Source of the DNA: Tridacna crocea
Lineage: Eukaryota > Mollusca > Bivalvia > Cardiida > Cardiidae
Reading direction: 5' to 3'
Length of the DNA stretch: 64,000 nt
Assembly: GCA_943736015.1 (NCBI GenBank)
Contig: OX031073.1
Coordinates: 29,539,210 to 29,603,209 of the forward strand
Positions 41,993 through 64,000 of the stretch are shown piece after piece. Numbering within the stretch: position 1 is the first letter of the stretch; every line of letters starts with the position of its first letter. The translations under genes and the position numbers were made by a program. The notes under the pieces were generated by a model, which was not told where the DNA came from, ran no database searches, and worked only from the letters and a program-made list of their open reading frames with translations.

Positions 41993-42085
41993 TCAGATGC
42001 TACCCAACTAGAACGACAGCCTGCTACACCTATACCGCAATTAAATCAACAACGAGGCCCTTCACAACAGTCACGTAATATCGTG
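41993..42085 (+). CDS. exon Y, copy A
   Basis: Acceptor TTTCTTTCATGTTACAG, donor GTG|GTAAGG. Exactly 31 codons, phase 0 at both ends, starting SDATQLERQPATPIPQ and ending SQQSRNIV. Rich in Q, P, S, T and N; likely a disordered linker. No family recognised. Because the exon is symmetric, any number of copies can be included or skipped without a frameshift. Copies B and D are identical to it over all 93 bp. Confidence 0.65.
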
Positions 42086-42189
42086 GTAAGGGTAGAGTCT
42101 TGATATATTACAGTTACCTTTAGAAGCCTCTGCAGCAGAAGCCTTTTTAAATTGGAATGTTAAGAGAAAGCATAAGTTTGCTGTGGGTT

Positions 42190-42480
42190 TTAAGCTCCAC
42201 TATCCAGTGGCAAGAAAACTCATTTCAAGGCTATTTATCCAAATATCTGTCTTTGTCTAACTTTCATTTCAAATATGTTCTTCTCTTAAATCACCCATCA
42301 CTTTCGACAAAACCCCCACAGAAATTATTCTACCATGACCCTCTTCAGAATCTTGTCAAAAATTTGTTTTCTGGTAAAAACCTTGGTTGCCACTGCAAGG
42401 AAATTGAAGAATATTCAAAATCTTTAAAAAGTTTGTCCAAAATTATTAGACCCAGGGCTGCCAAATTTTGCATCAAGGTA
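42190..42480 (+). mobile_element. decayed HINE type 2 fragment in array unit
   Basis: TTTTAAGCTCCACTATCCAG, then atttatccaaatatctgtc and the core phrase aaccttggttgccactgcaa match the type 2 5' part. Repeats with each unit (near 43,530, 44,873, 45,885, 46,897). Long open frames across it are passive copies of repeat sequence. Confidence 0.65.
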
Positions 42481-42895
42481 TTTGATTCAAAAAAGGATAC
42501 AAATGCAGAATGACTAAATTTACAACCCTTCTTTTATCTCACCTTAGCATGAATTTCTCAGTGTGATTGTATGATGATTGATTGTATTGTGTATAATGCC
42601 TTTTTCAACATTATTTCAATTATATTGCGTTTCCAACAGGGTAAGAAACATTGTGGAAGAAGGAGAAAATGCTTGTTACCAACAGTTTCGCCTGTTCCTA
42701 CAATGTTTTCCAAAGGCTTCTATCTCAGGGTGGTAAAAACCCGGGATTGTTTGGTAAAGGGTTAAGACTCTAAATTTTAGATCAAGGTTTTTGTGGAAAA
42801 AACGGACAATCTTGCAGATATCAAGCTACAAATGCAGAATGACTTAATTTACAACCGTTCTTTTATCTCATCTTAGCACGAATTTCTCAATGTGA

Positions 42896-43209
42896 TTGTA
42901 TGATGATTGATTGTGTGGTGTATAATGCCTTTTTCTACATTATTTCAATTATATTGCGGCTGCCAGTTCACTTATCCATGCTTTCCTGGAGTTTTTTTTA
43001 CCAGTACTTCGCAAAATATTCTTTTTAAGTCACCGGCTGCTTTCCCACATTACCATCATTGAAATATTGGTCAGCAATGGGAGAGGAATGAATCCTGTTG
43101 CAATGACTATCATCAGTCCTTGGAAAGAAATTGGCAGAGCCAGTGATTGAACTCAAGACCCCTTCTTCTCAAGTCCTACACACTACTGACTGCACTACTG
43201 GGGCGCGGC
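42896..43209 (-). mobile_element. tRNA-derived SINE, array unit B (complete)
   Basis: 314 bp between direct repeats AATTTCTCAATGTGA at 42,881-42,895 and 43,210-43,224. On the minus strand it reads GCCCCAGTAGTGCAGTC (A-box region), GTCTTGAGTTCAATCACTGG (B-box region) and a body ending in an AATATAAT/TACACCATACAATC tail. Degenerate tRNA promoter boxes plus a molluscan-type SINE tail. Confidence 0.8.
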
Positions 43210-43334
43210 AATTTCTCAATGTGAGCTATTTTGATAACTCACCATCTTTTGTTTCTCTGTCCCTTACTGATCTGTTAACTGTTCATCCTTCAGTTTATTT
43301 AGATAGAAAATGTTAGTTTTCTTTCATGTTACAG

Positions 43335-43427
43335 TCAGATGCTACCCAACTAGAACGACAGCCTGCTACACCTATACCGCAATTAAATCAACAACGAGGC
43401 CCTTCACAACAGTCACGTAATATCGTG
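43335..43427 (+). CDS. exon Y, copy B
   Basis: Same acceptor (ATGTTACAG), same donor (GTG|GTAAGG) and identical 93-bp sequence to copy A. Lies 1,342 bp downstream of it. Confidence 0.6.
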
Positions 43428-43970
43428 GTAAGGGTAGAGTCTTGATAATTTACAGTTACCTTTAGAAGCCTCTGCAGCAGAAGCCTTTTTAAATTGGAAT
43501 GTTAAGAGAAAGCATAAGTTTGCTGTAATTTTAAGCTCCACTATCCAGTGGCAAGAAAACTCATTTCAAGGCTATTTATCCAAATATCTGTCTATGTCTA
43601 ACTTTCATTTCAAATATGTTCTTCTCTTAAATCACCCATCACTTTCGACAAAACCCCCACAGAAATTATTCTACCATGACCCTCTTCAGAATCTTGTCAA
43701 AAATTTGTTTTCTGGTAAAAACCTTGGTTGCCACTGCAAGGAAATTGAAGAATATTCAAAATCTTTAAAAAGTTTGTCCAAAATTATTAGACCCAGGGCT
43801 GCCAAATTTTGCATCAAGGTATTTGATTCAAAAAAGGATACAAATGCAGAATGACTAAATTTACAACCCTTCTTTTATCTCACCTTAGCATGAATTTCTC
43901 AGTGTGATTGTATGATGATTGATTGTATGGTGTATAATGCCTTTTTCAACATTATTTCAATTATATTCCG

Positions 43971-44103
43971 TTTCCAACAGGGTAAGAAACATTGTGGAAG
44001 AAGGAGAAAATGCTTGTTACCAACAGTTTCGCCTTTTCCGACAAGGTTTTCCAAAGGCTTCTATCTCAGGGTAGTAAAAACCCGGGATTGTTTGGTAAAG
44101 GGT
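43971..44103 (+). mobile_element. truncated MITE, array unit C
   Basis: Begins at the chimeric junction (TTTCCAACAGGGTAAG) and ends TGGTAAAGGGTTAA. Left half missing as in unit B. Confidence 0.7.
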
Positions 44104-44236
44104 TAAGACTCTAAATTTTAGATCAAGGTTTTTGTGGAAAAAACGGACAATCTTGCAGATATCAAGCTACAAATGCAGAATGACTTAATTTACAACCCAT
44201 CTTTTATCTCATCTTAGCACGAATTTCTCAATGTGA

Positions 44237-44550
44237 TTGTATGATGATTGATTGTATGGTGTATAATGCCTTTTTCTACATTATTTCAATTATATTGCGG
44301 CTGCCAGTTCACTTATCCATGCTTTCCTGGAGTTTTTTTTACCAGTACTCCGCAAAATATTCTTTTTAAGTCGACGGCTGCTTTCCCACATTACCATCAT
44401 TGAAATATTGGTCAGCACTGGGAGAGGAATGAATCCTATTGTAATGACTATCATCAGTCCTTGGAAAGAAATTGGCAGAGCCAGAGATTGAACTCAAGAC
44501 CCCTTGTTCTCAAGTCCTACACACTACTGACTGCACTACTGGGGCGGGGC
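44237..44550 (-). mobile_element. tRNA-derived SINE, array unit C
   Basis: Same element and same flanking AATTTCTCAATGTGA repeats (44,222-44,236; 44,551-44,565) as unit B. Confidence 0.75.
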
Positions 44551-44675
44551 AATTTCTCAATGTGAGCTATTTTGATAACTCACCATCTTTTGTTTCTCTG
44601 TCCCTTACTGATCTGTTAACTGTTCATCCTTCAGTTTATTTAGATAGAAAATGTTAGTTTTCTTTCATGTTACAG

Positions 44676-44768
44676 TCAGATGCTACCCAACTAGAACGAC
44701 AGCCTGCTACACCTATACCGCAATTAAATCAACAACGAGGCCCTTCACAACAGTCAAGTAATATCGTG
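44676..44768 (+). CDS. exon Y, copy C
   Basis: 31 codons with intact ACAG acceptor and GTG|GTAAGG donor. Differs from copy A by one change, giving S for R near the end (SQQSSNIV). Confidence 0.6.
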
Positions 44769-45249
44769 GTAAGGGTAGAGTCTTGATAATTTACAGTTAC
44801 CTTTAGAAGCCTCTGCAGCAGAAGCCTTTTTAAATTGGAATGTTAAGAGAAAGCATAAGTTTGCTGTAGGTTTTAAGCTCCACTATCCAGTGGCAAGAAA
44901 ACTCATTTCAAGGCTATTTATCCAAATATCTGTCTTTGTCTAACTTTCATTTCAAATATGTTCTTCTCTTAAATCACCCATCACTTTCGACAAAACCCCC
45001 ACAGAAATTATTCTACCATGACCCTCTTCAGAATCTTGTCAAAAATTTGTTTTCTGGTAAAAACCTTGGTTGCAACTGCAAGGAAACTGAAGAATATTCA
45101 AAATCTTTAAAAAGCTTGTCCAAAATTATTAGACCCAGGGCTACCAAGTTTTGCATCAAGGTTTTTGATTCAAAAAAGGATACAAATGTAGGATGACTTA
45201 ATTTACAACCGTTCTTTTATCTCATCTTAGCATGAATTTCTCAATGTGA

Positions 45250-45563
45250 TTGTATGATGATTGATTGTATGGTGTATAATGCCTTTTTCAACATCATTTC
45301 AATTATATTGCGGCTGCCAGTTCACTTATCCATGCTTTCCTGGAGTTTCTTTTACCAGTACTCCGCAAAATATTCTTTTTAAGTCACTGGCTGCTTCCCC
45401 ACATTACCATCATTGAAATATTGGTTAGCAATGGGAGAGGAATGAATCCTGTTGCAATGACTATCATCAGTCCTTGGAAAGAAATTGGCAGAGCCAGTGA
45501 TTGAACTCAAGACCCCTTCTTCTCAAGTCCTACACACTACTGACTGCATTACTGTGGCGCGGT
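45250..45563 (-). mobile_element. tRNA-derived SINE, array unit D
   Basis: Flanked by AATTTCTCAATGTGA (45,235-45,249) and a one-base variant AATTTCTCAACGTGA (45,564-45,578). Confidence 0.75.
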
Positions 45564-45688
45564 AATTTCTCAACGTGAGCTATTTTGATAACTCACCATC
45601 TTTTGTTTCTCTGTCCCTTACTGATCTGTTAACTGTTCATCCTTCAGTTTATTTAGATAGAAAATGTTAGTTTTCTTTCATGTTACAG

Positions 45689-45781
45689 TCAGATGCTACC
45701 CAACTAGAACGACAGCCTGCTACACCTATACCGCAATTAAATCAACAACGAGGCCCTTCACAACAGTCACGTAATATCGTG
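45689..45781 (+). CDS. exon Y, copy D
   Basis: Identical to copy A over 93 bp, with the same splice signals. Belongs to the shorter 1,013-bp unit that lacks the MITE piece. Confidence 0.6.
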
Positions 45782-46262
45782 GTAAGGGTAGAGTCTTGAT
45801 AATTTACAGTTACTTTTAGAAGCCTCTGCAGCAGAAGCCTTTTTAAATTGGAATGTTAAGAGAAAGCATAAGTTTGCTGTAGGTTTTAAGCTCCACTATC
45901 CAGTGGCAAGAAAACTCATTTCAAGGCTATTTATCCAAATATCTGTCTTTGTCTAACTTTCATTTCAAATATGTTCTTCTCTTAAATCACCCATCACTTT
46001 CGACAAAACTCCCACAAAAATTATTCTACCATGACCCTCTTCAGAATCTTGATAAAAATTTGTTTTCTGGTAAAAACCTTGGTTGCCACTGCAAGGAGAC
46101 AGAAGAATATTCAAAATCTTTAAAAAGCTTGTCCAAAATTATTAGATTCAGGGCTGCCAAATTTTGCATCAAGGTTTTTGATTCAAAAAAGGATACAAAT
46201 GTAGAATGACTTAATTTACAACCGTTCTTTTATGTCATCTTAGCATGAATTTCTTAATGTGA

Positions 46263-46576
46263 TTGTATGATGATTGATTGTGTGGTGTATAATGCCTTTT
46301 TCAACATCATTTCAATTATATTGCGGCTGCCAGTTCATTTATCCATGCTTTCCTGGAGTTTCTTTTACCAGTACTCCGCAAAATATACTTTTTAAGTCAC
46401 TGGCTGCTTCCCCACATTACCATCATTGAAATATTGGTTAGCAATGGGAGAGGAATGAATCCTGTTGCAATGACTATCATCAGTCCTTGGAAAGAAATTG
46501 GCAGAGCCAGTGATTGAACTCAAGACCCCTTCTTCTCAAGTCCTACACACTACTGACTGCACTACTGGGGCGCGGC
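46263..46576 (-). mobile_element. tRNA-derived SINE, array unit E
   Basis: Same element, with slightly changed flanking repeats (46,248-46,262 AATTTCTTAATGTGA; 46,577-46,591 AATTTCTCAATGGGA). Confidence 0.7.
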
Positions 46577-46701
46577 AATTTCTCAATGGGAGCTATTTTG
46601 ATAACTCACCATCTTTTGTTTCTCTGTCCCTTACTGATCTGTTAACTGTTCATCCTTCAGTTTATTTAGATAGAAAATGTTAGTTTTCTTTCATGTTACA
46701 G

Positions 46702-46794
46702 TCAGATGCTACCCAACTAGAACGACAGCCTGCTACACCTATGCCGCAATTAAATCAACAACCAGGCCCTTCACAACAGTCACATAATATCGTG
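46702..46794 (+). CDS. exon Y, copy E
   Basis: 31 codons, intact acceptor and GTG|GTAAGG donor. Compared with copy A: I to M (PMPQ), R to P (QQPGP) and R to H (QSHNIV). No indel. Confidence 0.6.
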
Positions 46795-47320
46795 GTAAGG
46801 GTAGATTTACAATTTACAGTTACCTTTAGAAGCCTCTGCAGCAGAAGCCTTTTTAAATTGGAATGTTAAGAGAAAGCATAAGTTTGCTGTAGGTTTTAAG
46901 CTCCACTATCCAGTGGTAAGAAAACTCATTTCAAGGCTATTTATCCAAATTTCTGTCTGTGTCTAACTTTCATTTCAAATATGTTCTTCTCTTAAATCAC
47001 CCATCACTTTCGAGAAAACTCCCACAGAAATTATTCTACCATGACTCTCTTTAGAACCTTGTCAAAAATTTGTTTTCTGGTAAAAACCTTGGTTGCCACT
47101 GCAAGGAAACTGAAAAATATTCAAAATCGTTAAAAAGCTTGTTCACAATTATAAGGGCCAGGGCTACCAAATTTTGCATCAAGGTTTTTGATTCAGAAAA
47201 GGATACAAATGCAGAATGACTTAATTTACAACCCTTCTTTTATCTCACCTTAGCATGAATTTCTCAGTGTGATTGTATGATGATTGATTGTATGGTGTAT
47301 AATGCCTTTTTCAACATTAT

Positions 47321-50300
47321 TAGCTCACCTGAGCACGAAGTGCTCAGAGTGAGCTATTGTGATCACTCACCGTCCGTCGGCGTCCGTCGTCCGTCCGTCG
47401 TCCGTCCATCTGTCCGTCGTCCGTTCACATTTTCTTGTTTACACTCTAGCATCTACAAATATCAACCAATCAGCACCAAACTTGGTCAAAGTGTGTATGA
47501 CCATAAGATCTATGGGTCAAATCGGACCAGAACATCTGGAGTTATTTGCCCTTGAATTAAGAAAATTGCTATATTTCACTTTGTTTACACTCTAGCATCT
47601 ACAAATATCAACCAATCGGTACCAAACTTGGTCAAAATATATATGATCATAAGATCTCGGATGAGCATGATTATGGGTCTCGTCGGACCAGAACAACTGG
47701 AGTTATTTGCCCTTGAATTAGAAAAATCGCTATATTTGACTTTGTTTTCACTCTAGCATCTACAATTATTAACCAATCGACACCAAACTTGGACAAAATA
47801 TACATGACCATAAGATCACGGATGAGTTTGATTATGGGTGTAATCGGACCAGAACAACTGGAGTTATTTGCCCTTGAATTCGAAAAATTGCTGTATTTCA
47901 CTTTGTTTACACTCTAGCATGTACAAATATCAACCAATTAGTTCCAAACTTGGTCAAAACATATATGACTCTAAGATCTCAGATGAGTCCGATTATGGGT
48001 GACCAGAACAACGTGAGTTATTTGCCCTTGAATTAGAAAGTTTTTAGCTCCACTGGCCGAAGGCCAGCGGGCTATTGTCATGGCCCTTGTCCGTCGTGCG
48101 TCCGTCCGTCCGTACGTCCGTGCGTCCGTGCGTCCGTCCGTGCGTCCGTGCGTCCGTCCGTCCGTCCGTGCGTTAATTTTTTCTTTAAACATCTTCTTCT
48201 CTGAAACTACCCATCCAATTTTGACGAAACTTCACAGAAATGATCCTGCCATGGTCCTCTTCAGAATTTCTTGAAATAATTTAATTCCTTCAAAAACTCT
48301 GGTTGCCATGGCAACAAAACTGAAAATTTTTGAAAATCTTTGAAAATCTTCTTGTCTGAAACCGTAAGGCCTAGGGCTACCAAATTTGGCATGTAGCTTT
48401 ATCTAGTGGACCTCTACAAAGTTTCTTCAAATTATAGCCCTGGGGTCAAAATTGGCCCCGCCCCGGGGTTCAAAAGTTTTACATGGGCTTATTTAGGGAG
48501 AACTTTAAAACTCCTCTTCTACCTAGGCATAGGGCCTAGGGCTACCAAATTTGGGATGTTGTTTTATCTAGTGGACCTCTACCAAGAGTGTCTAAATTAT
48601 AGCCCGGGGGTCAAAATTGGCCCCGCCACGGGGGTACCAAGTTTTACATGGGCTTATATTGGGAGAACTTTAAAATTCTTCTTCCACCTAGCTATAGGGC
48701 ATAGGGCTACCAAATTTGGCATGTAGCTTTATCTAGTGGACCTCTACCAAGGGTGTCCAACTTATAGCCCAGGGGTCAAATTTGGCCCTGCCCCGGGGGG
48801 GGGGGGGGGTAACAAATTTTACATGGGCTTATATAGGGAATACTTTCAAAATCTTCTCACGCCTAACTACAAGGGCTAGGGCTATCAAATTTTGCGTGTA
48901 GCTTTATCTTGGCGGTCTCTACCAATGGTGCCCAAATTATAGCCCTGGGGTCAAATTTAGCCCCGTCACAGGAGGTCACAAGTTTTACATGGGCTTATAT
49001 AGGGAAACTTTGATAATCTACTTGTACATAGCCATAAGGCCTAGGGCTACCAAATTTTGCATGTAGCTTTATCTAATGGGCCTCTACCAAGAGGGCCCAA
49101 ATTTTAACTTTGGGGAACAAGTTTGACCCCACCCCAGGGGTCACAAGTTTTACATTGGCTTTGTAAACCTGTCTCATGGGTCACATATTTTACAGGGCCT
49201 TTTATTGAGCAGATTTGTTTAACAGGGCTTTTTATTGGGCAACATTAAAAAATCTTCGTGTTTATAACCACACATTCTAGTTTCATATTGTAGGTCTGGG
49301 GTCAAAATTGGCTCCATCCAGGGATCACAACTTTAACATAGGCTTCAAAATATAATCACTTCAATTTAAACATTAATCAAGGGAAATAATTTTTTTTTTA
49401 TGAAAGATAAAGTTTGGTACTATTTACCTCACTTGATTATCAAACTACATTGATACATGATTGGTACTAGACATTAAGTTTTTTGATAGAAAATATTCTG
49501 TTTTCAAGGGTGATTCATTTTGATGCTAATAGTTATGCTCACATGAGGTGAATAATAAATTCAGAGTAAGGTTTCTATCATTCAGCTTATTTTTCCAGGG
49601 ATTTTACCTTTCATACTAATGAATTAACCTGCTTGTACTGCCTGACAGTGTTCATTGTTTTTGAAGGCCCTCTTTTTCATGGTCATGAACACTTGAATTT
49701 GTGTGGTAAAGGGTTAAAAAGCCAGTGGAGCGATACAGGGCCATCATGGCCCTCTTGTTTTAGAATAGTTCTTAGTCTGGAGCATAGCTTTGTCATTTCC
49801 AGTCAAATTTACTTGAAACTTGGCATTTGTGTTTATTGCAATAAAACAGAGTGCAGTGTGAAAGAACCATAACTCTACTTCATACTGTCTATAAGTTAAT
49901 TCCCTTTGATTGAAATTTTTACAGCATTTTCTGCTTGTCTGGAATATAACTTTGTCATCTACAGCCTGAACATTGTCAAATTTGATATGCATGATTGTTG
50001 TAAAATTATGGAGTGCATTGCACAAGAACCATAACTTCCTAGCACAAATTTTGAGTTATTCCCCCTTCATTTTTATAGCATTTCTTGCTTTGTCAGGAGC
50101 AAAACTTTGTCATGTTAAGGAGGAATGACTTGAAATTTGGTATGCTTATTTGTTGCAGTATTTGGAAGTGCAGTGCCTAAGAATTGTAACTGTACCTTGT
50201 GCTGTCTTTAAGTTATTTCCCTTTGAATATCATTTTTACAGCATTTAGTGCCTGCCCTGAATATAACTGTCATCTTAAGTCAGAACGACTTCAAACTTGG

Positions 50301-50577
50301 TATTCATGTTTTTTGCAATATTACGGAGTACAGTGCACAAGAACAATAACTCTACGTAGCAGGAATTTTGAGTAATTCCACTTTGATCTTCATTTTTACA
50401 GTATTTCTTGCTTGTATGGAATGGAACTTCAAAATCTCAAGTTAGATTGCAACAATTTGCGGCTCCTGTTTCATTATCATTTGGCCTTGAACCTTGTTAT
50501 TTGGTATATATCCTTATTTTAGACCTGTGCTGCTTGGTACTCAGGTGAGCGATATAGGACCATCATGGTCCTCTTGT
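47321..50577 (+). mobile_element. HINE type 1 inserted into the array, itself split by a type 2 HINE
   Basis: Left arm 47,321-48,043 (AGCTCACCTGAGCACGAAG, GTCCGTCGTCC microsatellite at 47,372-47,424, ~150-bp CTCTAGCATCTAC monomers); right arm 49,760-50,577 (TTGTCATTTCCAGTC monomers), ending ACTCAGGTGAGCGATATAGG, hairpin, CTCTTGT. It interrupts the SINE tail CAACATTATT / TTCAATTA, which is intact in units B and C (near 42,607-42,622). This proves that the two arms are one element. Confidence 0.85.
48044..49758 (+). mobile_element. HINE type 2 nested in the type 1 HINE
   Basis: AGCTCCACTGGCCGAAGGCC start; long microsatellite of GTCC, GTGC and GTAC units at 48,090-48,175; core; five ~178-bp monomers including a G15 tract at 48,795-48,809; 3' end GCCAGTGGAGCGATACAGG, hairpin GGGCCATCATGGCCC, TCTTGT. 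The 5' AGCTCCACTGGC is exactly inverted at the 3' side. One of the best-preserved type 2 copies. Confidence 0.85.
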
Positions 50578-50588
50578 TTCAATTACCG

Positions 50589-51410
50589 TATAAGTACTTT
50601 TTTCTGCGGGGTCCAAATTCTGCGGATTCTAAAAAAAACAGGGGGTTTAAAATTCTGCGTACCTTTTTTCTGCGCTAGTGAGTCTGATTAAAAAATGGAT
50701 TTTACAATTGCGCTTTATTTTGATGATGTACCGGTAACAGCTTCCATTTTGGACAGGTATATTCTATTATTCATTTCCGTTGTTGTCGTCTTCAATTAAA
50801 AGGACACTATTCATGTAGTTAAAAGAATCACACACACACATTTTTTTTTAATGTTAACTAATAACTATTTTATTCATTGCAATGCCATATTCATTTCTGT
50901 ATCAAATCCAGAGGAACATATTCTTCCAATGCTTCCAAGATCCCTGCCGATCTGAATCCGTAAGTTATTTACTAATTTTGATTCGTTCTCTTCAAGTGAA
51001 ATGATATTAGGGGGAGAAGGGTTTAAATGGTTCGACATGTGAAATTAACAATAGTATAAACTTTGTTTTCTACCCTTAGGCGATGTCATAACGGCATGCA
51101 AATATCGTAAAGCGCGAATAATAGGTCGCACCTACCAAACTGTAAATTAATTGTATGGTAACTGTTAACATTAAAACTTAGAATTAAGATCGCTTTGACC
51201 CTTCTACCTCCATTGTCCATTCTGACACAGGTACCAAGTTCAACCCCCACCCCCCCAAAACAACAACAACGAGTAAAAGAACAACAAATACGACGACGAT
51301 AGAAAAATTCTTTTTATTTGGATTAAATTTTCGCGTCTTTTAAATCTGCGCTGCTGCATGTCCCCGCAGATAAAGCAGAAATAAAGTCACCGCAGAAAAA
51401 AGTGCTTATA
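50589..51410. mobile_element. 0.8-kb TIR element (TATAAG...TTTTTTCTGCGG)
   Basis: Inverted ends TATAAGTACTTTTTTCTGCGG-like at 50,589 and CCGCAGAAAAAAGTGCTTATA ending 51,410 (one mismatch). It lies nine or so bases past the HINE end, inside the same SINE tail (CAATTA ... TATTGCG), so it inserted separately. No coding frame; class unknown. Poly-C/A tract at 51,246-51,268. Confidence 0.65.
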
Positions 51411-51779
51411 CTTATAAAAGTGCTTATTATTGCGTTTCCAACAGGGTAAGAAACATTGTGGAAGAAGGAGAAAATGCTTGTTACCAACATTTTCTCCTTT
51501 TCCGACAATGTTTTCCAAAGGCTTCTATCTCAGGGTGGTAAAAACCCGGGATTGTTTGGTAAAGGGTTAAGACTCTAAATTTTGAACAAGGTTTTTGTGG
51601 AAAAAACGGACAATCTTGCAGATATCAAGCTACAAATGCAGAATGACTTAATTTACAACCCTTCTTTTATCTCATCTTAGCATGAATTTCTCAATGTGAT
51701 TGTATGATGATTGATTGTATGGTGTATGGAGTCTTGATTATTTACAGTTACCTCTAGAGGCCTCTACAGCAGAATTCTT
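51411..51779 (+). repeat. array remnant without its Y exon
   Basis: Resumes at the chimeric junction (TATTGCG|TTTCCAACAGGG), runs through the MITE piece (to 51,570) and the SINE tail (to ~51,726), then jumps to GGAGTCTTGATTATTTACAG, which normally follows exon Y. SINE body and Y exon are deleted. Confidence 0.75.
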
Positions 51780-53578
51780 TTTAGATTGTGCTGTGTCCGA
51801 CGTCCATCGTCCGCCGTGTATCATCTGTCGTCAACTTTTTACCTTGTGTACACACTATAGGCCACATTTCCATGGCCAGCATGTTTATCTCAATAAAATC
51901 TCGGACGAGTTCGAAAATGGGTTATTTCGGGTAAAAAACTAGGTCACTTCTTAGAAAAATATCGTGTACACTCTAGAGTCCACATTTTCTGTTCAATACT
52001 CCTGAAAGTTGGTCAGAATGTTTGCCTTGGTGATATCTCAAACTAGTTTGAAAATTGGTCATGTTGGGTCAAAAACTAGGTCACCAGGTCAGATCTTAGA
52101 TAAACCTTGAATACGCTCTAGAGACCACATTTTCAGTCCAATATTCATGAAAATTGGTCAGAATGTTTGTCTTGATGATATCTGGGATATGTGTGTCAAT
52201 GGATTATGTCGGGTCAAAAACTAGGTCATTTGGTCAAATCCTATGAAAATCTTCTGTACGCTGTCGAGGACACATTTTCAGTCCAAAACCCCTGTAAAGT
52301 TGGTCAGAATGTTTGCGGGGATGATATCTCGGGCCAGTTTAAAAATAGCTCATGTAGGGTCAAAAACAAGATCACCAGGTGAAATCATAGAAAAACCTTG
52401 TGTGCACTCTAGAGGCCACATTTACAATCGAAAACTCCTGAAAGTTGGTCAGAGTGTTTGTCTTGATGATATGTTGAATTGTTTGAAAATGGGCCATGTT
52501 GGGTCAAAAACTAGGTCGCTGGGTCAAAATTTAGAAAAACCTTGTGTACACTCTAGAGGCCACATTTTCAGTTTGATACTCTTCAAACGTGGTCAGAAAG
52601 TTTGTTATTGGTGATATCTCAACAGACTTTGATAATGGGAATTTTGGATCAAAAACTAGGTCACTGGGTCAAAAATTAGTAAAACCTTGTGTACGCTTTA
52701 GAGGCCGCATTTTACAGTCTGATACTTTCCAAACTTGATTAGAGTGTTTAGAGTGTTTGTTTTGGTGATATCTCAAAAGAGTTTGATAATGGGTAATGTC
52801 GGGTCAAAAACTAGGTCACTTGGTCATATCTTAGAAAAAACTTTTTTACACTTTAGAGGCCTCATTTTCAGTCCAGTACACACGAAACTTTGTCAGAATG
52901 TTTGTCTTAGTGATATCTCAAAAGTGTTTGATAGTGGGTAATGTCTGATAAAAAACTAGATCACTAGGTCAAATCTTAGAAAAATTGTTTGTATGCTCTA
53001 GAGGCCACATTTTAAAGGTGGCCCTTCGGATTTTGGGACGAAAATTTTACAAAAATACAAAAAAATCATCCTTATACCCCCAAGGCCTTTTAATTTTCAT
53101 TTAAAAAAAATAGTAGTCGAAAACTATCCGAAACAGGAGAAATAAGAGATTTACTTCAGCCCAGGTTGACATCCATGGGAAGCACGGTCTATTTCTACTT
53201 AAGCAACTCACTACATGCCTGTTATTTTATGGAATTTAAGCGTCATTAGTCAGGTGCCAGTCATTTGACGTGCCAGTCATTTGACATTTTTTTTGGATTT
53301 TTGGTGCGAAATTTAGAAATACCTTAAGAGGCTCCGTAGCCATTTAAGGGAATACCATCAAATAATTTTTTTTTTGTAATTTTATGATTCTTAATTATTG
53401 ATAATTTGTATTTTTTTTTTTCATATATCAAATTTCAATGAAAAATACATGTACATCTTTTTTAATTTGGTGAGATTGGAAACATCTAAATAGCAACCTT
53501 TAAGTCCAAAACTCATGAAAGTTGGTCAAATTGTTTGTCTTAATAATATCTTGAGAGAGCTCAAACATTGGTAATGTA
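51780..53578 (+). mobile_element. HINE type 1 ~145-bp core, without 5' hairpin
   Basis: GTCC/GTCG-rich start at 51,787-51,830, then about ten monomers (ctctagaggccacatttt, gggtcaaaaactaggtcac). A MITE interrupts it at 53,012-53,503. Homologous to 62,764-64,000, including its junction with array sequence (TTTTTAGATTGTGCTGTGTCC-like). Confidence 0.7.
53012..53503. mobile_element. AGGTGG MITE, TTAA-flanked
   Basis: TTAA then AGGTGGCCCTTCGGATTTTG at the left; TAGCAACCT then TTAA at the right. The surrounding HINE monomer reads CCACATT...GTCCAAAACTC, as expected if the insertion was into a TTAA. Second copy at 60,998-61,546; a third begins at the window end. Confidence 0.75.
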
Positions 53579-53751
53579 CACTTTGGCTCCAAGTTATGGA
53601 GCCAACAGAGATATTTACATGGCTGTGATGGGGGAGGGGGTAACTTGCTCTATATGGACATGAAGAAATTCTTAAAAATTCTTCTCTGAAATGGCTGGTC
53701 AGATATTGAAAATTAATAATTTCACAGAAATGTGGCTTTGTGACCCTTTTT

Positions 53752-54449
53752 AGCTCACCTGAGCATAACATGATCAAGGGCAGCTTTTAGGATCATGTTG
53801 TGTCCATAATGTGTCGTCGGTTGTCCGTCTTCTGTTGTCATCAACTTCTTTAAACATCTCCTACTTTTAAACCACTGGACGATTCCGGGAGGCCCTCTTT
53901 AAAAATTGTCCACAAAATTTGATTCCATCAAAAACTCTGGTTGCCATGGAAACCAAATGGAATTTTCTGAGAAAAGAGTTTGCCATGGAAATCAAATGGA
54001 ATTTTCTGAGAATTCTTTTTAAAAATCTCCTCTGAAACCACTGGTCAGATTTTGAAATAATTTCAAACAAATGTTCTTTTAATGACCCTTTTCAAAAATG
54101 TTCGCAAAATGCTAATTTGTCAAGAAACATGGCTCTGGTGAAAGGGGGTTACTTGCACTATATGGCCATGAAGAAATTCTTTAAATTCTTTTTCTCTGAC
54201 TCGGCTTATCAGATTTTGAATTAATTTCACAGAAATGTTTCTTGGCTGACCCTGTTCAAAAATTATTTGCGAAATGTTGATCCATCATGAAACATGGCTC
54301 TGATGGCTGTTGGCTATTTACACTATACAGACATGAAGAAATTCCTTAAAATTCTTCTTTATTGAAAAGGCTGATCAGATTTTTAAAATATTGGCTATGG
54401 TCCCCTCAAAAATTCAGATGAGAGGTCCAAGGCCAACTTGGCCCTCTTG
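53752..54449 (+). mobile_element. HINE type 1 (paralogue of 37,641-38,298)
   Basis: AGCTCACCTGAGCATAACATG to GGCCAACTTGGCC, CTCTTG. Contains a small internal duplication of ggaattttctgaga near 53,960-54,010. Confidence 0.75.
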
Positions 54450-54640
54450 CTTCTTTTTGCATTATAAACCCATGGTGAATGTTAGAAAATGAGCAGTATC
54501 ACTGCCAGTAGAGTAGTATGGGCCCTATAGGGCCTCTATTTAAGTTGGTGATATGAAAATCAGAATAATCGCTTTTAAGTGGCATTGTCTAGCAATTTTT
54601 GTTGTGCATTTGGTTTTTGTTTCCCTACAGACACTTTTTT
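54450..54640. other. duplicated spacer
   Basis: Equivalent of 38,299-38,513, including the GGGCCCTATAGGGCC hairpin. No gene. Confidence 0.5.
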
Positions 54641-54641
54641 T

Positions 54642-56805
54642 AGCTCACCTGAGCACGAAGTGCTCATGGTGAGCTATTGTGATCTAGCTGTGTCTGTCGT
54701 CCGTCGTCAACTTTTTACCTAGTGTACGCTCTAGAGGCCACATTTTCAGTCCGATACTCATGATAGTTGGTCAGGATGTTTTCCTCAATGAAATCTCGAA
54801 CGAGTTCGAAAATGGGTCATGTCAGGTCAAAAACTAGGTCACTAGGTCAAATCTTGGAAAAACCTTGTGTATGCTCTAGAGGTCACATTTTCAGTCGGAT
54901 ACTCACGAAAGTTGGTCAGGATGTTTGTCTGGATGATATCTCAGACGAGTCCGAAAATGGGTCATGTCAGGTCAAAAACTAGGTCACTAGGTCAAATCTT
55001 AGAAAAACCTTGTGTATGCTCTAGAGGTCACATTTTCAGTCGGATACTCATGAAAGTTGGTCAGGATATTTGTCTGGATAATATCAAGACGAGTTCGAAA
55101 ATTGGTCATATCAGGTCAAAAACTAGGTCACTAGGTCAAATCTTAGAAAAACCTTGTGTATGCTCTAGAGGCCACATTTTCAGTCCGATACTCATGAAAG
55201 TTGGTAAGGATATTTGCCTGGATGATATCTCGGAGAAGTTGAAAAATGGGTCATTGGGGGTCAAAAACTAGGTCACTAGGTCAAATTTTAGAAAAGCCTT
55301 GTGTACGCTCTAGAGGCAACATTTTCAGTCGGTTACTCATGAAACTTGGTCAGGATGCTTGTCTGGATAATATCTCGGACGAGTTTGAAAATGGGTCATT
55401 GGGGTCAAAACTAGGTCACTAGGTCAAATCTTAGAAAAACCTTGTGTACGCTCTAGAGGCCAAATTTTCGGTCGGATACTCATAGAAGTTGGTCAGGATG
55501 TTTGTCTGGATGATATCTCAGACGAGTTCGAAAATGGGTCCTATGCGTTAAAAAACTAGGTCACTAGGTCAAATTTTAGAAAAACCTTGTGTACGCTCTA
55601 GAGGCCACATTTTCAGTCCAAAACTCTTGGAAGTTCTACAGAATGTTTGTCTTGATAATATCTCAGATGAGTTCGAAAATTGGTCATGTCGGGTCAAAAA
55701 CTAGGTCACTAGGTCAATTCTTAGAAAACCTTGTGTACGCTCTAAAGGCAACATTTTCAGTCCGATACTCATAAAAGTTGGTCAGGATGTTTGCCTTGAT
55801 GAAATATATGACGAGTTTGAAAATGGGTCATGCCACGTCAAAAACTAAGTCACTAGGTCAAATCTTTAAAAAACCTTGTGTAAGCTCTAGAGGCCACATA
55901 TTCAATTGGATACTCATGAAAATTGGTCAGGATGTTTGCCTGGATGATATCTCGGACAAGACCGAAAATGGGTCATATGGGGTCAAAAACTAGGTCACTA
56001 GGTCGAATTTTAGAAAAACCTTGTGTACGCTCTAGAGGCCACATTTTCAGTGCAGTACTCTTGTAAGTAGGTCAGAATGTTTGCCTTGATGATATATTGG
56101 ATGAGTTTGAAAATGGGTCAGTGGGGGTTAAAAACTAGGTCACCAGGTCAAATCTTAGAAAAACCTTATATGCTCTGGATGCCACATTTTCAGTCACACA
56201 CTCTTGAAAATTAGTCAGAATGTTTGCCTTTATAATATCTTGGATGAGTTTGAAAATGGGTCATGTTTGGTCAAAAACTGGGTCAATAGGTCAAATGTTA
56301 TAAACACCTTTTGTATACTCTGGAGGACACATTTTCAGTCTGATACTCCTAAAACTTGTTCATAATATTTGTCCTGGTGATACCTTGAATGAGTTTTAAA
56401 AAATGGGTCATGAGGAGTCAAAAGCTAGGTCAATGGGTCAGATATTAGAAAAACCATGTGTACACTCTAGAGGCTACATTTTATGCCTGATACTCTTCAG
56501 ACTTGGTCAGAATGTTTGTTTTGGTGATGTCTCAAAGAGTTTGATAATGGGTAATTGTCGGGCCCAAAACTAGGTCATTTGGTAAAATCTTAGAAAAACC
56601 TTTTGAACGCTGTAGAGGCCACATTTTCAGTCCAATACTCATGAAACTTGGTCAGAATGTTTGTCTTATTGATATCTCAAAAGTGTTTGATAATGGGTAA
56701 TGTCTAGGTCTAATGATAAAAAACTAGGTCACTGGGAAACTAGATGGTTCATGTTTGGTCAATAGACTCAGGTGAGCGATTTCATTGCCATCATGGCCCT
56801 CTTGT
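54642..56805 (+). mobile_element. HINE type 1 with fourteen ~145-bp monomers
   Basis: AGCTCACCTGAGCACGAAG and CATGGTGAGCT hairpin, short TCTGTCGTCCGTCGTC, then fourteen monomers with the CTCTAGAGG word near 54,729, 54,874, 55,019, 55,164, 55,309 and so on to 56,610. End ACTCAGGTGAGCGATTTC, hairpin, CTCTTGT. Absent from the paralogous position at about 38,513-38,523, so it inserted after the segmental duplication or was never in copy 1. Confidence 0.85.
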
Positions 56806-57200
56806 TTGCTTGGATGATAATATGTGTGCAGAGCAAAATAATAAAATGATCAGAAAGTCATGTTGCAGAGCAAGATACAGGGATAGAGTTCTTTGAAAGG
56901 GACAAATCTTGTCAAAAAAACAAAAATTAGGCTGTAATTCCAAGCCTGCAAAAGGTTCTTAAGTTGTAGATATTGCTGAATAAGTCATTATACTTATCGG
57001 TGTGATTTTTGCAAAAAGGACAAAGGATCAATCTAAAGAATAAATGCACCCCAGACATACCAGTAACAATTAGAAATATTCTAACGTGTCAACAAGGATG
57101 TATTTTATGATCAATTTCCTGCAGTAAACAAAAAAATCTGCTGACAGATTTTTCTTAAATTACGCACAGAAAAAGTGCTATCCAATATCTTGCCATTTTT
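56806..57200. other. duplicated intron spacer
   Basis: Equivalent of about 38,521-38,917 with scattered substitutions. No gene. Confidence 0.5.
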
Positions 57201-58236
57201 AGTTCCACTGGCTGAAGGCCAGCGGGCTTATGTCATTGCCTGGTGTCCATCATTCGTCCGTCCGTCCATGTGTTAACTTTTATCTTAAATATATTCTCCT
57301 CCCAAATAACCCATCCACTTTTGATGAAACTTCACAGAAATGATCCTGCCAAGCCATGGTCCTCTTCAGAATTTCTTGAGAGAATTTGATTCCTTGAAAA
57401 ACTCTGGTTGTCATGGCAACAAAATTTGAAATTTTTGCAAATCTTTGAAAATCTTCTTGTTTGAAACCATAAGGAGTAGGGCTATGAAATTTGGCATTCT
57501 ATGAAGTTTCTTCAAATTATAGCCCTAGGGTCAAATTTGACCCGCCCTGGGGGGGTCACAAGTTTTACATGGTCTTATATGGAGAAAAAATTAAAAATCT
57601 TCCTGTACCTAGCCATGAGGCCTACAGTTGCCAAATTTTATATATGGCTTTATCTAGTGGGCGTCTACCAAGAGTGCCCACATTATAGCCCTGAGGTCAA
57701 ATTTGAAGCCATCCCGGGGGTTTGAAGTTTTACATGGGCTTGTATAGGGAACACTTTAGAAATCTCCCTGTACTTAGCCATGAGGCCTACAGTTACCAAA
57801 TTTTGCATGTGGCTTTATCAAGTGGTCCTCTGCCAAAAGTTCTCTGAGGCCAAAAGTTCCATGAAGTCAAAATTAGCACCACCCCAGGGGTCACAAGTTT
57901 TACATGGGCTAATAGAGAGAAAACTTCAGAAATCGCCCTGTACGTAAAAATAAAGCCTTGGGCTACCATTTTCCCATGCAGCTTTGTCTAGTGGGCCTTT
58001 ACCAAGAGTGTGTAAATTATAGCCCTATGGTCGAAGTAGATTCATCCTCAGGGGTCAGAAGTTTTGCAAAGGCTTATATAGTGAAACCTGTAGAAATCTT
58101 ATTGTTACTAATAATTTCAGTCCTGTCTCAGGGGTCTTATGTTCAAAACCAATTGACTAAGTATTATAATGCTTGGCATGTAGGGAATCTACATATTAGC
58201 CAGTGGAGCAATATAGGGCCATAATGGCCCTCTTGT
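57201..58236 (+). mobile_element. HINE type 2 (paralogue of 38,918-39,934)
   Basis: AGTTCCACTGGCTGAAGGCC start, 3' end AGCCAGTGGAGCAATATAGG, hairpin GGGCCATAATGGCCC, TCTTGT. Inherited with the block rather than independently inserted. Confidence 0.8.
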
Positions 58237-59358
58237 TTAAAGATATGATACATTTTTAAGACTTATTGACGAAATGAATCACCTGCCTTTATTGTAAACA
58301 CAGATTTTTGTGTGATTTGGCATCCAGATCATTTGTAATTCTCCTATTTTTCTCCTTCATCTGGAATTTTCAGATAATTGATAGGCAATGAACACTCTAC
58401 ATATTACAATTGGATTAAAATGCTATGTCACTGTCATCCTAACTTAACGAAATATAATAGAGTTTACAAAGAATGAGCAATATAGTTAGGGGATATGTCC
58501 TAAATACCATATTTAGTTACGTGGCATCTCACCATGCATTCTTAGATTTTCTGATATTGCGGTATTAACTTTTGACAAATATTTAGAATTCTAAACATGA
58601 AATTCGTCTATCTAGAAAATAATGGGAAAAGGAGAAAATGCTGGTTGCATCTGGGTTTTTTTCTTTTCCCATAAATTTTTGCAAAGCTTTTTCTCAGGGT
58701 ATTGTAAAGTTTGGATTATTTGGTAAAGAATAAACTTTTCATTATGAACAAGAAATTTCAATAAAAATGATTTATCTTGAGTTTTCTAAAATTGTCCTGG
58801 TACTTATCGTGTATCTTGTAGCAGATATATGCTACCATAGAAGGTATGTTTATGCTGCTCTCAAAAGTTTACCGTCACAATTTATTTGTGTTTCAGTATT
58901 TTTTATCCGTTGTCTGAAATTGATTATTCATTTGTCATATCATACAAAAGATTATCAGTTGAAAGAATGGGAGAAATGTAATCAAGACTGGGTGCTCGGA
59001 GTTATGACCTGTCTCTTTGTCCAGAAATGACTAAACAAACTCTGCGCCAGAAGGCTGCATTAAATCTTTACTTAATAATGAAATTTTTGTATTGTCCAAA
59101 CTCCAGTCATTCTCCGACATATTAACGTGGCTGATACGATGAAGGAAGAAGAAGAAAAACTCACCGAGACGTTACTAGCATATACCCTTTTCTGAAATGT
59201 TTTCTTTACGGTTGTTAAAACTCATGATTGTCATGAAGGATCAGAACAATTTGTGAAGTGTCTAAAGCCAAGAAATGCTTTTATTTACATTTTTCGTTCT
59301 GCAAAAATTCTTAGATGATACTGTAATAAAATTTGGTTGTTTTCTCTTTAAATCATAG
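58237..59358. other. intron sequence duplicated from 39,935-41,051
   Basis: Includes the MITE fragment (58,620-58,730). The 87-codon frame at 58,767-59,030 is not preserved in the other copy (40,470-40,730), so it is not called. Confidence 0.5.
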
Positions 59359-59460
59359 ATACAAGATGTTGATGCAATTTCGTCAGTGTGCAGCCAACAC
59401 GCAACAAATAAATCAGTAAATGCTATTGATGACAACAAGGGATTAAGTGAAACTTCAGAG
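59359..59460 (+). CDS. exon X, copy 2 (GC donor)
   Basis: Acceptor AAATCATAG, 34 codons starting IQDVDAISSVCSQHATNKSV and ending GLSETSE, donor GAG|GCAAGT. Differs from copy 1 at several codons, mostly replacing residues, without indels. Phase 0 at both ends. Confidence 0.6.
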
Positions 59461-59522
59461 GCAAGTTATGATTCTGGGGCAAAGTTTCCACTTTATCTAT
59501 TGCGATGAGCATTTACATCTAT

Positions 59523-59751
59523 TTAACCCTTTACCAAACGACAAAATTCTAGACCTATCCAAAATGAAAGCACTTACAGACGACAAAATACACATTACAA
59601 AATAATTTAAATTTGTTTCAAACAGGGTAAGAAACATTGTGAAAGAAGGAGAAAAAGCTGGTTACCAACATTTTCTCCTTTTCCCACAATGTTTTCCAAA
59701 GGCTTCTATCTCAGGTTGGTAAAAACCTGGGATTGTTTTGTGAAGGGTTAA
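59523..59751 (+). mobile_element. piggyBac-like MITE, TTAA on both sides
   Basis: TTAACCCTTTACCAAACGAC to TTTTGTGAAGGGTTAA, with internal hairpin gagaaaaagctggttacc against its inverse. Orthologous by duplication to 41,216-41,443. Confidence 0.8.
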
Positions 59752-60003
59752 GACACTAAATTTTAGATCAAGGTTTTTGAGGCAAAAAAGGATAATCTTG
59801 CAGATATCATGCTACAAATGCAGAATTTACAACCCTTCCTTTTAGCTCATCTTGGAATGACTTTTCTCAATGTATTGTATGATTGAATGATTGTATGGTG
59901 TTTAACGACATTTTCTACATTATTTCAATTATATTGCGGCTGCCATTTCAAATATATTCTTCTCTTAATAGATATAAAATGTTAGTTTTCTTTCATGTTA
60001 CAG

Positions 60004-60096
60004 TCAGATGCTACCCAACTAAAACGACAGCTTGCTACACCTATACCGTTATTAAATCAACAACCAGGCCCTTCACAACAGTCAAGTAAAATAATG
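60004..60096 (+). CDS. exon Y, copy F
   Basis: Acceptor ATGTTACAG, donor ATG|GTAAAG (slightly weaker). 31 codons starting SDATQLKRQLATPIPL and ending SQQSSKIM. Nearly all differences from copy A change residues (E to K, P to L, Q to L, R to P, R to S, N to K, V to M), yet length and frame are kept. The SINE upstream is truncated (59,880-59,944). Confidence 0.55.
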
Positions 60097-60394
60097 GTAA
60101 AGGTCTTGATTATTTACAGATACCTTTAGAATCCTCTGCAGCAGAAGCCTTTTTAAATTGGAATGTTAAGAGAAAGCACAAGTTTACTGTAGGTTTTAAG
60201 CTCCACTAGCCAATGGCCAGTAAACTAATTTCAAGGCTGTTTATCCAAATATCTGTCTGGGACTAACTTTCATTTCAAATTTTGCATCAAGGTTTTTGAG
60301 GCAAAAAAAGGATAATCTTGCAGATATCAAGCTGCAATTGCAGAATTTACAACCCTTCCTTTAGCTCATCTTGGAATGAATTTCTGAGTATGAT

Positions 60395-60692
60395 TGAATG
60401 ATTGTATGGTGTTTAACGACGTTTTCAATATTATTTCAAATATATTGCGGCTGCGGCTGCCAGTGCACCTGTCCATGTTTTCCTGGAGTTTCTTTTACCA
60501 GTGCTCTGCAAAATATTCTTTTCAAGCTACTGGCTGCTTTCCCACATAACCATCACTGAAATATTGGTTAGCAGTGGGCGAGGAATGAATCTTGTGGCAA
60601 TGACTCATCAATCCTTGGAAAGATATTGGCAGAACCCAAGACCCCTTGTTCTCAAGTCCTTCACGCTACCAACTGAGCTACTGGGGCCTGTC
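60395..60692 (-). mobile_element. tRNA-derived SINE, array unit G
   Basis: Flanks AATTTCTGAGTATGA (60,380-60,394) and GTTTCTCAATGTGA-like (60,693-60,707). Minus-strand head reads GGCCCCAGTAGCTCAGTTGG, a better A box than in units A-E; tail GTCGTTAAACACCATAC. Confidence 0.75.
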
Positions 60693-60800
60693 AGTTTCTC
60701 AATGTGAGCATCTTTTCTCTCTCTGTCCCTCACAGATATGTTAACTGTTCATCCTTCATGTTATTTTGATATAAAATGTTAGTTTTCTTTCATGTTACGG

Positions 60801-60893
60801 TCAAATGCTACCCAACTAAATCAACAGCCTGCTACACATATACAACAATCAAATCAACAACCAGGTCCTTCACAACAGTCAACTAATACAATG
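60801..60893 (+). pseudogene. exon Y, copy G, acceptor lost
   Basis: 31 open codons starting SNATQLNQQPATHIQQ, good donor ATG|GTAAGG, but the acceptor reads GTTACGG instead of GTTACAG. It cannot be used as it stands unless another AG is chosen. The coding frame is undamaged, so loss may be recent. Confidence 0.6.
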
Positions 60894-60997
60894 GTAAGGG
60901 TAGAGTCTTGATTATTTACAGTTATCTCTAAAAACCTCTACAGCAGAAGCATTTTTAGATTGTAATGATAAGAGAAAGCACAAGTTTGCTGTAGGTT

Positions 60998-61546
60998 TTA
61001 AAGGTGGCCCTTCAGAATTTGGGACGAAAATTTTAAAAAAGTGCGAAAAAATCATCCTCATATTCCCAAAGCCTTTTAATTTGCGTTCATAAAACGCAAA
61101 TAGTCGAAAATCATCTGACAACACGAGAAATTAGAGATTTACCACGGCCCAGGTTGACACCAAAGGGAGACACGTTCTATTTTTAGACGATCAATTCGCT
61201 CATTTTAATATAGGAATACACAGATAAAGTTTAAAACACAGCGTCCAAAGAAGACATTATGGAAAATATTTATTACATGTTTGTTATGTAATGGAATTTA
61301 AGCGTTATTAGTCACGTGCCAGTCACTTGACATTCCAACAATGCTTTATTGATTTTTGGCGCGAAATCTAAAAATACCTTAAGAGGCTAAGTAGCCTGTT
61401 AAGGGAACACCATCAAAAAACATTTTTTTTTGTAGTTTTATGAGTCTCAATTATTGATGATTTGTATTATTTTTTCTTATAAATTTCAGTGATATATATA
61501 TTTTTTGATTAAGTGAGATGTTAAAACTCTAAATACCCACCTTTAA
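60998..61546. mobile_element. AGGTGG MITE, TTAA-flanked
   Basis: TTAA-AGGTGGCCCTTCAG at the left and CCCACCT-TTAA at the right. The empty site GTAGGTTTTAAGCTCCAC is intact in array unit C (about 44,867-44,884), proving a TTAA duplication. Confidence 0.85.
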
Positions 61547-61905
61547 GCTCCACTAATCAATGGCCAGTAAGCACATTTCAAGGCTTTTTATCCAAATATC
61601 TGTCTGTGTCTTTCATTTCAAATATATTCTTCTCTGAAACCTCCCATCACTTTCGACAAAACTCCCACTGAAATCATTCTACCATGACCCTCTTCAGAAT
61701 CTTGTCAAAAATTTGCTTTCTGGTAAAAACTTTGGTTGCCGCTGCAACGAAACTTGAAATATTCAAAATCTTTTAATACCTTTTTCAAAATTAAAAGGCC
61801 TAGGGCTGCCAAATTTTGCATCTGGCTTTATCTACCAGACTCTTTATCAAGATTCTTCAAACTGAAGCGCTACAATTAAAAATTGCCTCGCCAAGTTTTT
61901 CATAG
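61547..61905 (+). mobile_element. decayed HINE type 2 fragment
   Basis: AAGCTCCACTAATCAATGGCC, then core phrase aactttggttgccgctgcaa and ggcctagggctgccaaattt. Continues into exon X copy 3. Confidence 0.55.
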
Positions 61906-62007
61906 ATACAAGATATTGATGACAATCCGTCAGTGTGTAGCCAACACTCAACAAATAAATCAGGAAATGCTATTGATGACAACAAGGGATTAGATGAAAC
62001 TTGAGAG
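61906..62007 (+). pseudogene. exon X, copy 3, in-frame stop
   Basis: Acceptor TTTCATAG, same 102-bp length, same GC donor (GAG|GCAAGT), starting IQDIDDNPSVCSQHSTNKSG. The third-last to second-last codons read ACT TGA (stop at 62,002-62,004). If included, translation would end here; otherwise it must be skipped. Confidence 0.6.
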
Positions 62008-62194
62008 GCAAGTTAGATTCTTTGGCAAAGTTTCCACTTCATCTATTGCACAGTGCACTTGCATCTATTTTAGACTCTAAATTTTAGATCAAGGTTTTTG
62101 AGGCAAAAAAGGATAATCTTGCAGATATCAAGCTACAAATGCAAAATTTAAAACCCTTCCTTTAGCTCATCTTAGAATGAATTTCTCAGTGTGA

Positions 62195-62499
62195 TTGTAT
62201 GACTGAATGATTGTATGGTGTTTAACGACGTTTTCAACATTATTTCAGTTATATTGCGGCTGCACCTGTCCATGCTTTCCTGGAGTTTTTTTTTTTCTTT
62301 TTTACCAGTGCTCTGCAAAATATTCCTTTAAAGCTACTGGCTGCTTTCCCACTTAACCATCACTGAAATATTGGTTAGCAGTGGGCGAGGAATGAATCTT
62401 GTGGCAATGACTCATCAATCCTTGGAAAGATATTGGCAGAACCCAAGACCCCTTGTTCTCAAGTCCTTCACGCTACCAACTGAGCTACTGGGGCCTGTC
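62195..62499 (-). mobile_element. tRNA-derived SINE, array unit H
   Basis: Flanks AATTTCTCAGTGTGA (62,180-62,194) and AGTTTCTCAATGTGA-like (62,500-62,514). Minus-strand head GGCCCCAGTAGCTCAGTTGG, then GGGTCTTGGGTTCTGCC; tail GTCGTTAAACACCATAC. Confidence 0.75.
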
Positions 62500-62607
62500 A
62501 GTTTCTCAATGTGATCATCTTTTCTCTCTCTGTCCCTCACAGATCTGTTAACTGTTCATCCATCAGTTTATTTTGGTAAAAAATGTTATTTTTCTTTCAT
62601 GTTACAG

Positions 62608-62700
62608 TCAAATGCTACCCGGCTTAATCAACAGCCTGCTACACCTATACCAAAATCAAATCAACAACCAGGTTCTTCACAACAGTCAAGTAATATAATG
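62608..62700 (+). CDS. exon Y, copy H
   Basis: Acceptor ATGTTACAG, donor ATG|GTAAGG. 31 codons starting SNATRLNQQPATPIPK and ending SQQSSNIM, phase 0 at both ends. Last recognisable exon in the window; the gene presumably continues to the right. Confidence 0.6.
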
Positions 62701-63994: not shown

Positions 63995-64000
63995 AAAGGT

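What the first reader, a model, noticed from the sequence alone, without database searches (positions are those of the whole stretch)
41993..62700. Expandable array of symmetric 93-bp mini-exons downstream of a DED exon
Eight copies of a 31-codon, phase 0-0 exon (Y) lie in series: five in near-identical 1.34/1.01-kb tandem units, three in an older diverged block. Seven have both splice sites. Being symmetric, they let the protein gain or lose 31-residue Q/P/S/T-rich segments with no frameshift, by unequal crossing-over or by exon skipping. This could give a death-domain protein a linker of variable length between alleles and transcripts. Exon inclusion is inferred, not shown.
Basis: partly seen in the sequence, partly recalled or inferred. 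Interest (0 to 1): 0.8.

Follow-up and report, generated by a model that had tools for sequence, protein, structure and literature searches.

The report
Repeated linker exons, possible DED-RNase gene
A clam-like animal seems to have a gene that joins a cell-death docking domain to an RNA-cutting enzyme through a floppy linker, and the linker is encoded by short repeated exons that could be added or removed without breaking the protein; no RNA evidence was available.

Summary
Eight 93-nt phase 0-0 Y exons lie at the stated coordinates; seven keep both splice dinucleotides. The genome search found these 8 and no other Y in the 1.05-Gb assembly. Spacings are 1342, 1341, 1013 and 1013 bp; the two unit sizes differ by one 329-bp block bounded by 132-bp direct repeats, as unequal exchange predicts.

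Two things were missed. The DED exon leaves in phase 1 and cannot join Y directly; a weak 1-to-0 exon, Z, could link them. And 14.4 kb past the last Y, outside the window, a phase-0 exon without its own early ATG encodes an IRE1/RNase L-type pseudokinase and KEN ribonuclease. Among 7 DED and 7 KEN matches found in the assembly, only these two lie near each other.

The parts
17868..18097 (+). DED exon, enters phase 2, leaves phase 1 (AAA|gtaaga); reading through instead gives TAA at 18112-18114
   Evidence: Pfam DED 5.2e-15; PDB cFLIP/caspase-8 DEDs, best 1.5e-4; boundaries; stop
32873..32982 (+). Candidate linking exon Z, phase 1 in, phase 0 out; weak donor (TCG|gtaaaa)
   Evidence: One of 3 candidates of this phase type at its own score thresholds (minus-strand control 2); not among the 3 found at a stricter donor threshold, so not above chance by score
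41052..41153 (+). Exon X1, 102 nt, phase 0-0, GC-AG donor GAG|gcaagt
   Evidence: 3 genome matches, all in window
41993..42085 (+). Y1, 93 nt, phase 0-0
   Evidence: splice scores
43335..43427 (+). Y2
44676..44768 (+). Y3
45689..45781 (+). Y4
46702..46794 (+). Y5
51434..51725 (+). Remnant of a further unit with no Y exon, followed from 51726 by sequence homologous to that just after Y8
   Evidence: Half-MITE match 51434-51583 98.7%; 51726-53019 vs 62707-64000 87%; 51584-51725 by eye
59359..59460 (+). Exon X2, GC-AG donor
60004..60096 (+). Y6, weaker donor (ATG|gtaaag)
60801..60893 (+). Y7, acceptor AG lost (GG)
61906..62007 (+). X3, splice signals kept but in-frame TGA at codon 33 of 34
62608..62700 (+). 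Y8, last Y. The proposed 3' exon of the gene (pseudokinase + KEN RNase) lies beyond the window at C18:29616271-29617527 (L010:3062-4318), 14.4 kb downstream
   Evidence: Y8. KEN exon: Pkinase 8.7e-26 and Ribonuc_2-5A 4.8e-16; PDB IRE1 1.2e-30; acceptor in 99.8th percentile; sequence

Best explanation
The Y array is the variable middle of one large gene. In order: a DED exon, a bridging exon (candidate Z), the symmetric X and Y exons, then a single exon with an IRE1/RNase L-type pseudokinase and KEN endoribonuclease. The DED would gather the protein on a death-effector platform, and clustering would dimerise the KEN domain and switch on RNA cleavage, as dimerisation does in IRE1 and RNase L (recalled knowledge). 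The Y exons encode a Q/P/S/T/N-rich, probably disordered tether whose length, not sequence, matters; each copy adds 31 residues in frame. Copies are gained and lost by unequal exchange between near-identical units, and splicing may skip some. Shown: exons, phases, splice dinucleotides, domains, single-locus occurrence, recombination footprint. Inferred: the transcript, exon inclusion, disorder, activation, function.
For: Phase chain DED(1) - Z(1,0) - X(0,0) - Y(0,0) stays open when joined (DED, Z, X1, Y1-Y5), and the KEN exon enters in phase 0. The KEN exon has no in-frame ATG before its glycine-loop region, so it needs a 5' partner leaving in phase 0. The assembly search gave 7 DED matches (6 over the cut-off; 25 candidates scored) and 7 KEN matches (10 candidates scored), both lower bounds; only here do they lie near each other, 59 kb apart on one strand. 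By my arithmetic about 0.0014 such pairs are expected at random; this was a post hoc look. None of 26 Death-domain matches lies near a KEN match (nearest about 2.6 Mb). The 7 intact Y acceptors score in the 98.9th percentile of window AG sites and 7 of 8 Y donors in the 99th of GT sites (Y6: 92.9). Over at least 27 substitutions the Y copies show no stop (chance 0.13-0.17) and no indel (about 2.4 expected from flanks, my arithmetic). Footprint of unequal exchange: 329-bp block between 132-bp repeats. The KEN Y, R, N and H positions are identical to IRE1 (4pl3_A) in the alignment; that these are the catalytic residues is recalled.
Confidence: 0.5

Rival explanations
1. The X/Y exons are decaying, mostly skipped cassettes in a long intron of the same gene; the array expands neutrally as intronic tandem DNA and adds little or nothing to the protein.
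For: Exon and intron rates are equal; dN/dS near 1; one acceptor lost, one stop; a unit without Y persists.
Against: Seven of 8 Y copies keep both splice sites and all 8 keep frame 0 open with no indel, while both other frames hold stops in every copy; joint chance about 0.01 by my arithmetic, on a tree set by eye.
Confidence: 0.27
2. Two genes: a small DED-only gene that ends at the TAA 14 nt past the putative donor, and a separate X/Y-KEN gene with its own first exon.
Against: AAA|gtaaga is a usable donor; co-location of DED and KEN on one strand is unlikely by chance.
Confidence: 0.17
3. The array is a mobile element or satellite that happens to contain splice-like sites.
For: The window is full of tandem arrays, and the 1.34-kb units carry part of a foldback MITE.
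Against: The genome search found Y 8 times and X 3 times, all at this locus.
Confidence: 0.02
4. The five near-identical Y units are an assembly artefact.
For: Tandem near-identity is a known cause of misassembly (general knowledge).
Against: The four units compared differ pairwise by 23-38 substitutions, and the two size classes by a clean 329-bp block; the array is only about 6 kb.
Confidence: 0.04

Closest known systems
Titin PEVK exons
   Same: Short, highly repetitive exons with many alternatively spliced isoforms, where length variation is proposed as raw material for adaptation (PMC6469411, abstract read)
   Different: A muscle spring with many more exons (recalled); here 8 Y and 3 X exons next to a DED and an RNase, and inclusion is unproven
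RNase L
   Same: N-terminal interaction module, pseudokinase, KEN RNase (architecture recalled)
   Different: DED instead of ankyrin repeats (recalled); no 2-5A binding shown. RNase L was reported not found in Pacific oyster, limpet, lamp shell and other non-vertebrates that have OAS (PMC6307210, passages read)
IRE1 and IRE1-like kinase-RNases
   Same: Kinase plus KEN, best PDB hit IRE1 at 1.2e-30; five other loci in this assembly with kinase and KEN in one open frame
   Different: HRD is HRG and the DFG position reads GNLG only in this copy of the six aligned; no DED or Death match found near the others
Oyster and lancelet DED/TRADD-N immune proteins
   Same: DED joined to variable effector domains, in lancelets through a low-complexity linker; one Crassostrea gigas architecture also holds a HEPN RNase (PMC8195603, passages read)
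   Different: Whole-word search of that paper's main text found no KEN, IRE1 or RNase L

Membership tests
Death effector domain (PF01335) | Significant match over the domain | tested here: met
   E 5.2e-15, 55.9 bits vs cut-off 35.9, profile 2-81 of 82
IRE1/RNase L kinase-KEN family | Kinase domain followed directly by KEN (PF06479) | tested here: met
IRE1/RNase L kinase-KEN family | RNase residues Y, R, N, H retained | tested here: met
   Identical to IRE1 4pl3_A in the alignment; R373, N374, H378 invariant in 6 of 6 aligned copies. Their catalytic role is recalled
IRE1 proper | Active kinase motifs HRD and DFG | tested here: not met
   HRG and GNLG
IRE1 proper | ER lumenal domain and transmembrane segment | tested here: inconclusive
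   No ATG before the kinase in the KEN exon; upstream exons not proven and not searched for a lumenal domain
RNase L | N-terminal ankyrin repeats binding 2-5A | not tested
   No ankyrin search was run on the locus
PEVK-like exon array | Tandem in-phase exons for a flexible segment (definition recalled) | tested here: met
   8 phase 0-0 copies; Q/P/S/T/N 58% in Y1, 71% in Y8; flexibility itself inferred
PEVK-like exon array | Exons alternatively spliced in mRNA | not testable with these tools
   No transcripts held
DED and KEN encoded by one gene | Single transcript | not testable with these tools
   Supported only by phase and position

The most novel reading that the evidence does not exclude
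A DED-driven, RNase L-like effector in an invertebrate: oligomerisation through the DED activates a pseudokinase-KEN RNase, linking death-effector signalling to RNA decay, with tether length tuned by a copy-number-variable mini-exon array. It would give bivalves such as the Pacific oyster, reported to have OAS but no RNase L, a different route to regulated RNA cleavage.
Probability: 0.22. Interest if true: 0.8.

Novelty: new variant of a known kind. Interest (0 to 1): 0.55.

Why it matters
If one transcript joins these parts, a death-effector domain sits on an IRE1/RNase L-type RNase. My searches of open-licence full texts did not show this described: 'KEN domain' + 'death effector domain' 0 papers; 'IRE1' + 'RNase L' + 'death effector domain' 1 unrelated poxvirus review, the same one with 'death domain' and 'mollusc'; an IRE1-like/pseudokinase search 3 papers unrelated by title and abstract; a bivalve IRE1 expansion search 142 papers, of which I saw a listing of 20 and read none. 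It would bear on the question of what, if anything, does the job of RNase L in animals that have OAS but no RNase L. The array would also be a natural test of how tether length affects clustering-activated enzymes.

Tried and rejected
Mobile-element origin of Y: rejected, all 8 genome matches lie here. Direct DED-to-Y splicing: rejected on phase. Purifying selection on Y residues: tested, not found. A tRNA-like stretch in the Y introns, seen by eye: ARAGORN and Rfam do not support it. OAS in this assembly: OAS1_C gave no match, but the control genomes gave none either, so inconclusive. AlphaFold model of the pseudokinase-KEN part: mean pLDDT 53 from six sequences, too poor to use; no fold search was run. 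Whether Z matches elsewhere in the assembly: not completed (all busy). Pfam was run on 8 of the 99 open frames listed, so weak exons may be missed. The tree used to count changes was set by eye from pairwise distances. Alignment columns with gaps were dropped, and its 7-copy counts leave out Y6, whose upstream intron is not alignable; with Y6 the exon count is 27/93, acceptor 2/20, donor 1/6.

Full report
Observation. A fuzzy search (up to 32 mismatches) for the 93-nt Y exon returns eight copies on the + strand, at 41993, 43335, 44676, 45689, 46702, 60004, 60801 and 62608, and none on the minus strand. In ten shuffled windows (+ strand) the closest match had 50 mismatches. All eight are free of indels and open in frame 0, while both other frames hold at least one stop in every copy. 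Seven keep AG and GT; Y7's acceptor is GG. Y1-Y5 spacing is 1342, 1341, 1013 and 1013 bp. The four units between Y1 and Y5 are 96.3-98.3% identical and differ in size by one 329-bp block that lies between 132-bp direct repeats 94.7% identical, just what recombination between those repeats would delete or add. The block carries part of a foldback MITE whose fuller copies lie within 41205-41460 and 59513-59768.

Locus history. Two segments are duplicated: 38517-41648 with 56802-59950 (92%) and 51726-53019 with 62707-64000 (87%). Each module starts with an X exon (102 nt, phase 0-0, GC-AG donor) and continues with Y exons. Module 1 has X1 and Y1-Y5 and ends in a Y-less remnant near 51434-51725. 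Module 2 has X2, Y6, Y7, X3, Y8. X3 has an in-frame TGA. In the 1.05-Gb assembly Y matched 8 times and X 3 times, all here. The source is not named; I take it for a bivalve because the window holds many tandem arrays with units of about 145-170 bp, which recall the satellite-like arrays of oyster Helentron elements (PMC7492417, abstract read); that is an inference.

Fetching the downstream flank brought the main new fact. At window coordinates 77062-78318, outside the window, a single exon with a strong phase-0 acceptor (99.8th percentile) encodes a kinase fold plus KEN RNase (Pkinase 8.7e-26, Ribonuc_2-5A 4.8e-16; IRE1 1.2e-30) and ends in TAA. It has no in-frame ATG before the glycine-loop region, so it needs an upstream exon leaving in phase 0, which X and Y provide. 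The genome search for KEN gave seven matches. Five of the other six have kinase and KEN in one open frame. Aligned with these five, our copy alone has HRG for HRD and GNLG at the DFG position (four of the five read DFG there, one DLG); R373, N374 and H378 of KEN are invariant in all six. The seventh match (C1:20.52 Mb) covers only part of the domain and was not aligned. The assembly gave seven DED matches, six over the cut-off, and 26 Death matches; none lies near another KEN match. About 0.0014 same-strand DED-KEN pairs within 60 kb would be expected by chance (my arithmetic; the match counts are lower bounds, and I looked downstream without a prior hypothesis).

Selection. On a tree set by eye the Y exons took at least 27 changes, spread 8, 11, 8 over codon positions. 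In seven copies without Y6 the exon took 23 changes in 93 sites, deep intron 65 in 267 (p = 1.0); the acceptor took 2 in 20 (p = 0.18), the donor 0 in 6. dN/dS for pairs with dS above zero is 0.59-1.29 for Y and 0.95-1.63 for X. So the residues are not conserved. The frame is: no stop (chance 0.13-0.17) and no indel (flanks show 36 gap events per 405 mismatches summed over the seven flank alignments, some overlapping, so about 2.4 expected on 27 changes, chance about 0.09). Together about 0.01, a modest case for a tether kept open but free in sequence. A young, mostly neutral cassette array is the strongest rival.

Mechanism. The most likely reading is a DED-tether-pseudokinase-RNase protein, activated by clustering. 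Steps shown: exons, phases, domains, single-locus occurrence, recombination footprint. Steps inferred: transcript, exon inclusion, disorder, activation, any role in immunity or cell death.

Known context. Repetitive exons with alternative splicing and length variation are known from titin PEVK (PMC6469411, abstract). DED fused to varied effector domains, in lancelets through a low-complexity linker, is known from oysters and lancelets (PMC8195603, passages). OAS without RNase L was reported for Pacific oyster, limpet and other non-vertebrates (PMC6307210, passages). Searches for 'KEN domain' with 'death effector domain' gave 0 papers; 'IRE1', 'RNase L' and 'death effector domain' gave one unrelated review (listing only). 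Only open-licence papers were searched, so prior description elsewhere is possible.

Verdict. Observation confirmed; interpretation partly supported. The array is a new case of a known kind of exon organisation; its apparent host gene is the more novel part.

Noticed in passing
C1:40.56 Mb, C2:71.79 Mb, C14:13.50 and 20.02 Mb, C16:8.94 Mb (L033, L034, L037, L038, L039): Five further loci with kinase and KEN in one open frame and HRD kept; in two (L037, L038) about 190-210 mostly polar residues precede the kinase in the same open frame. Looks like an expansion of IRE1-like genes (Pfam on four of the five).
   Followed up: partly
Upstream of the window, about window coordinates -34000 to -19000: Open frames that look like a Polinton/Maverick-type element, and a Gypsy-like element near -45000 to -41000 (by eye). 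Described only.
   Followed up: no
26240-29900: An insert with inverted ends (near CATAGCCAACTTTC / GAAAGTTGGCTATG) inside a 166-bp tandem array, perhaps a DNA transposon (by eye).
   Followed up: no
13095-13321, 18163-18382, 41205-41460, 59513-59768: A foldback MITE of about 227 bp, TTAA-flanked by eye; a partial copy lies in each 1.34-kb Y unit and at 51434-51583.
   Followed up: partly
61906-62007: X3 keeps splice signals but has TGA at codon 33 of 34; if included it would give a protein lacking the RNase, so it may be a poison exon.
   Followed up: no
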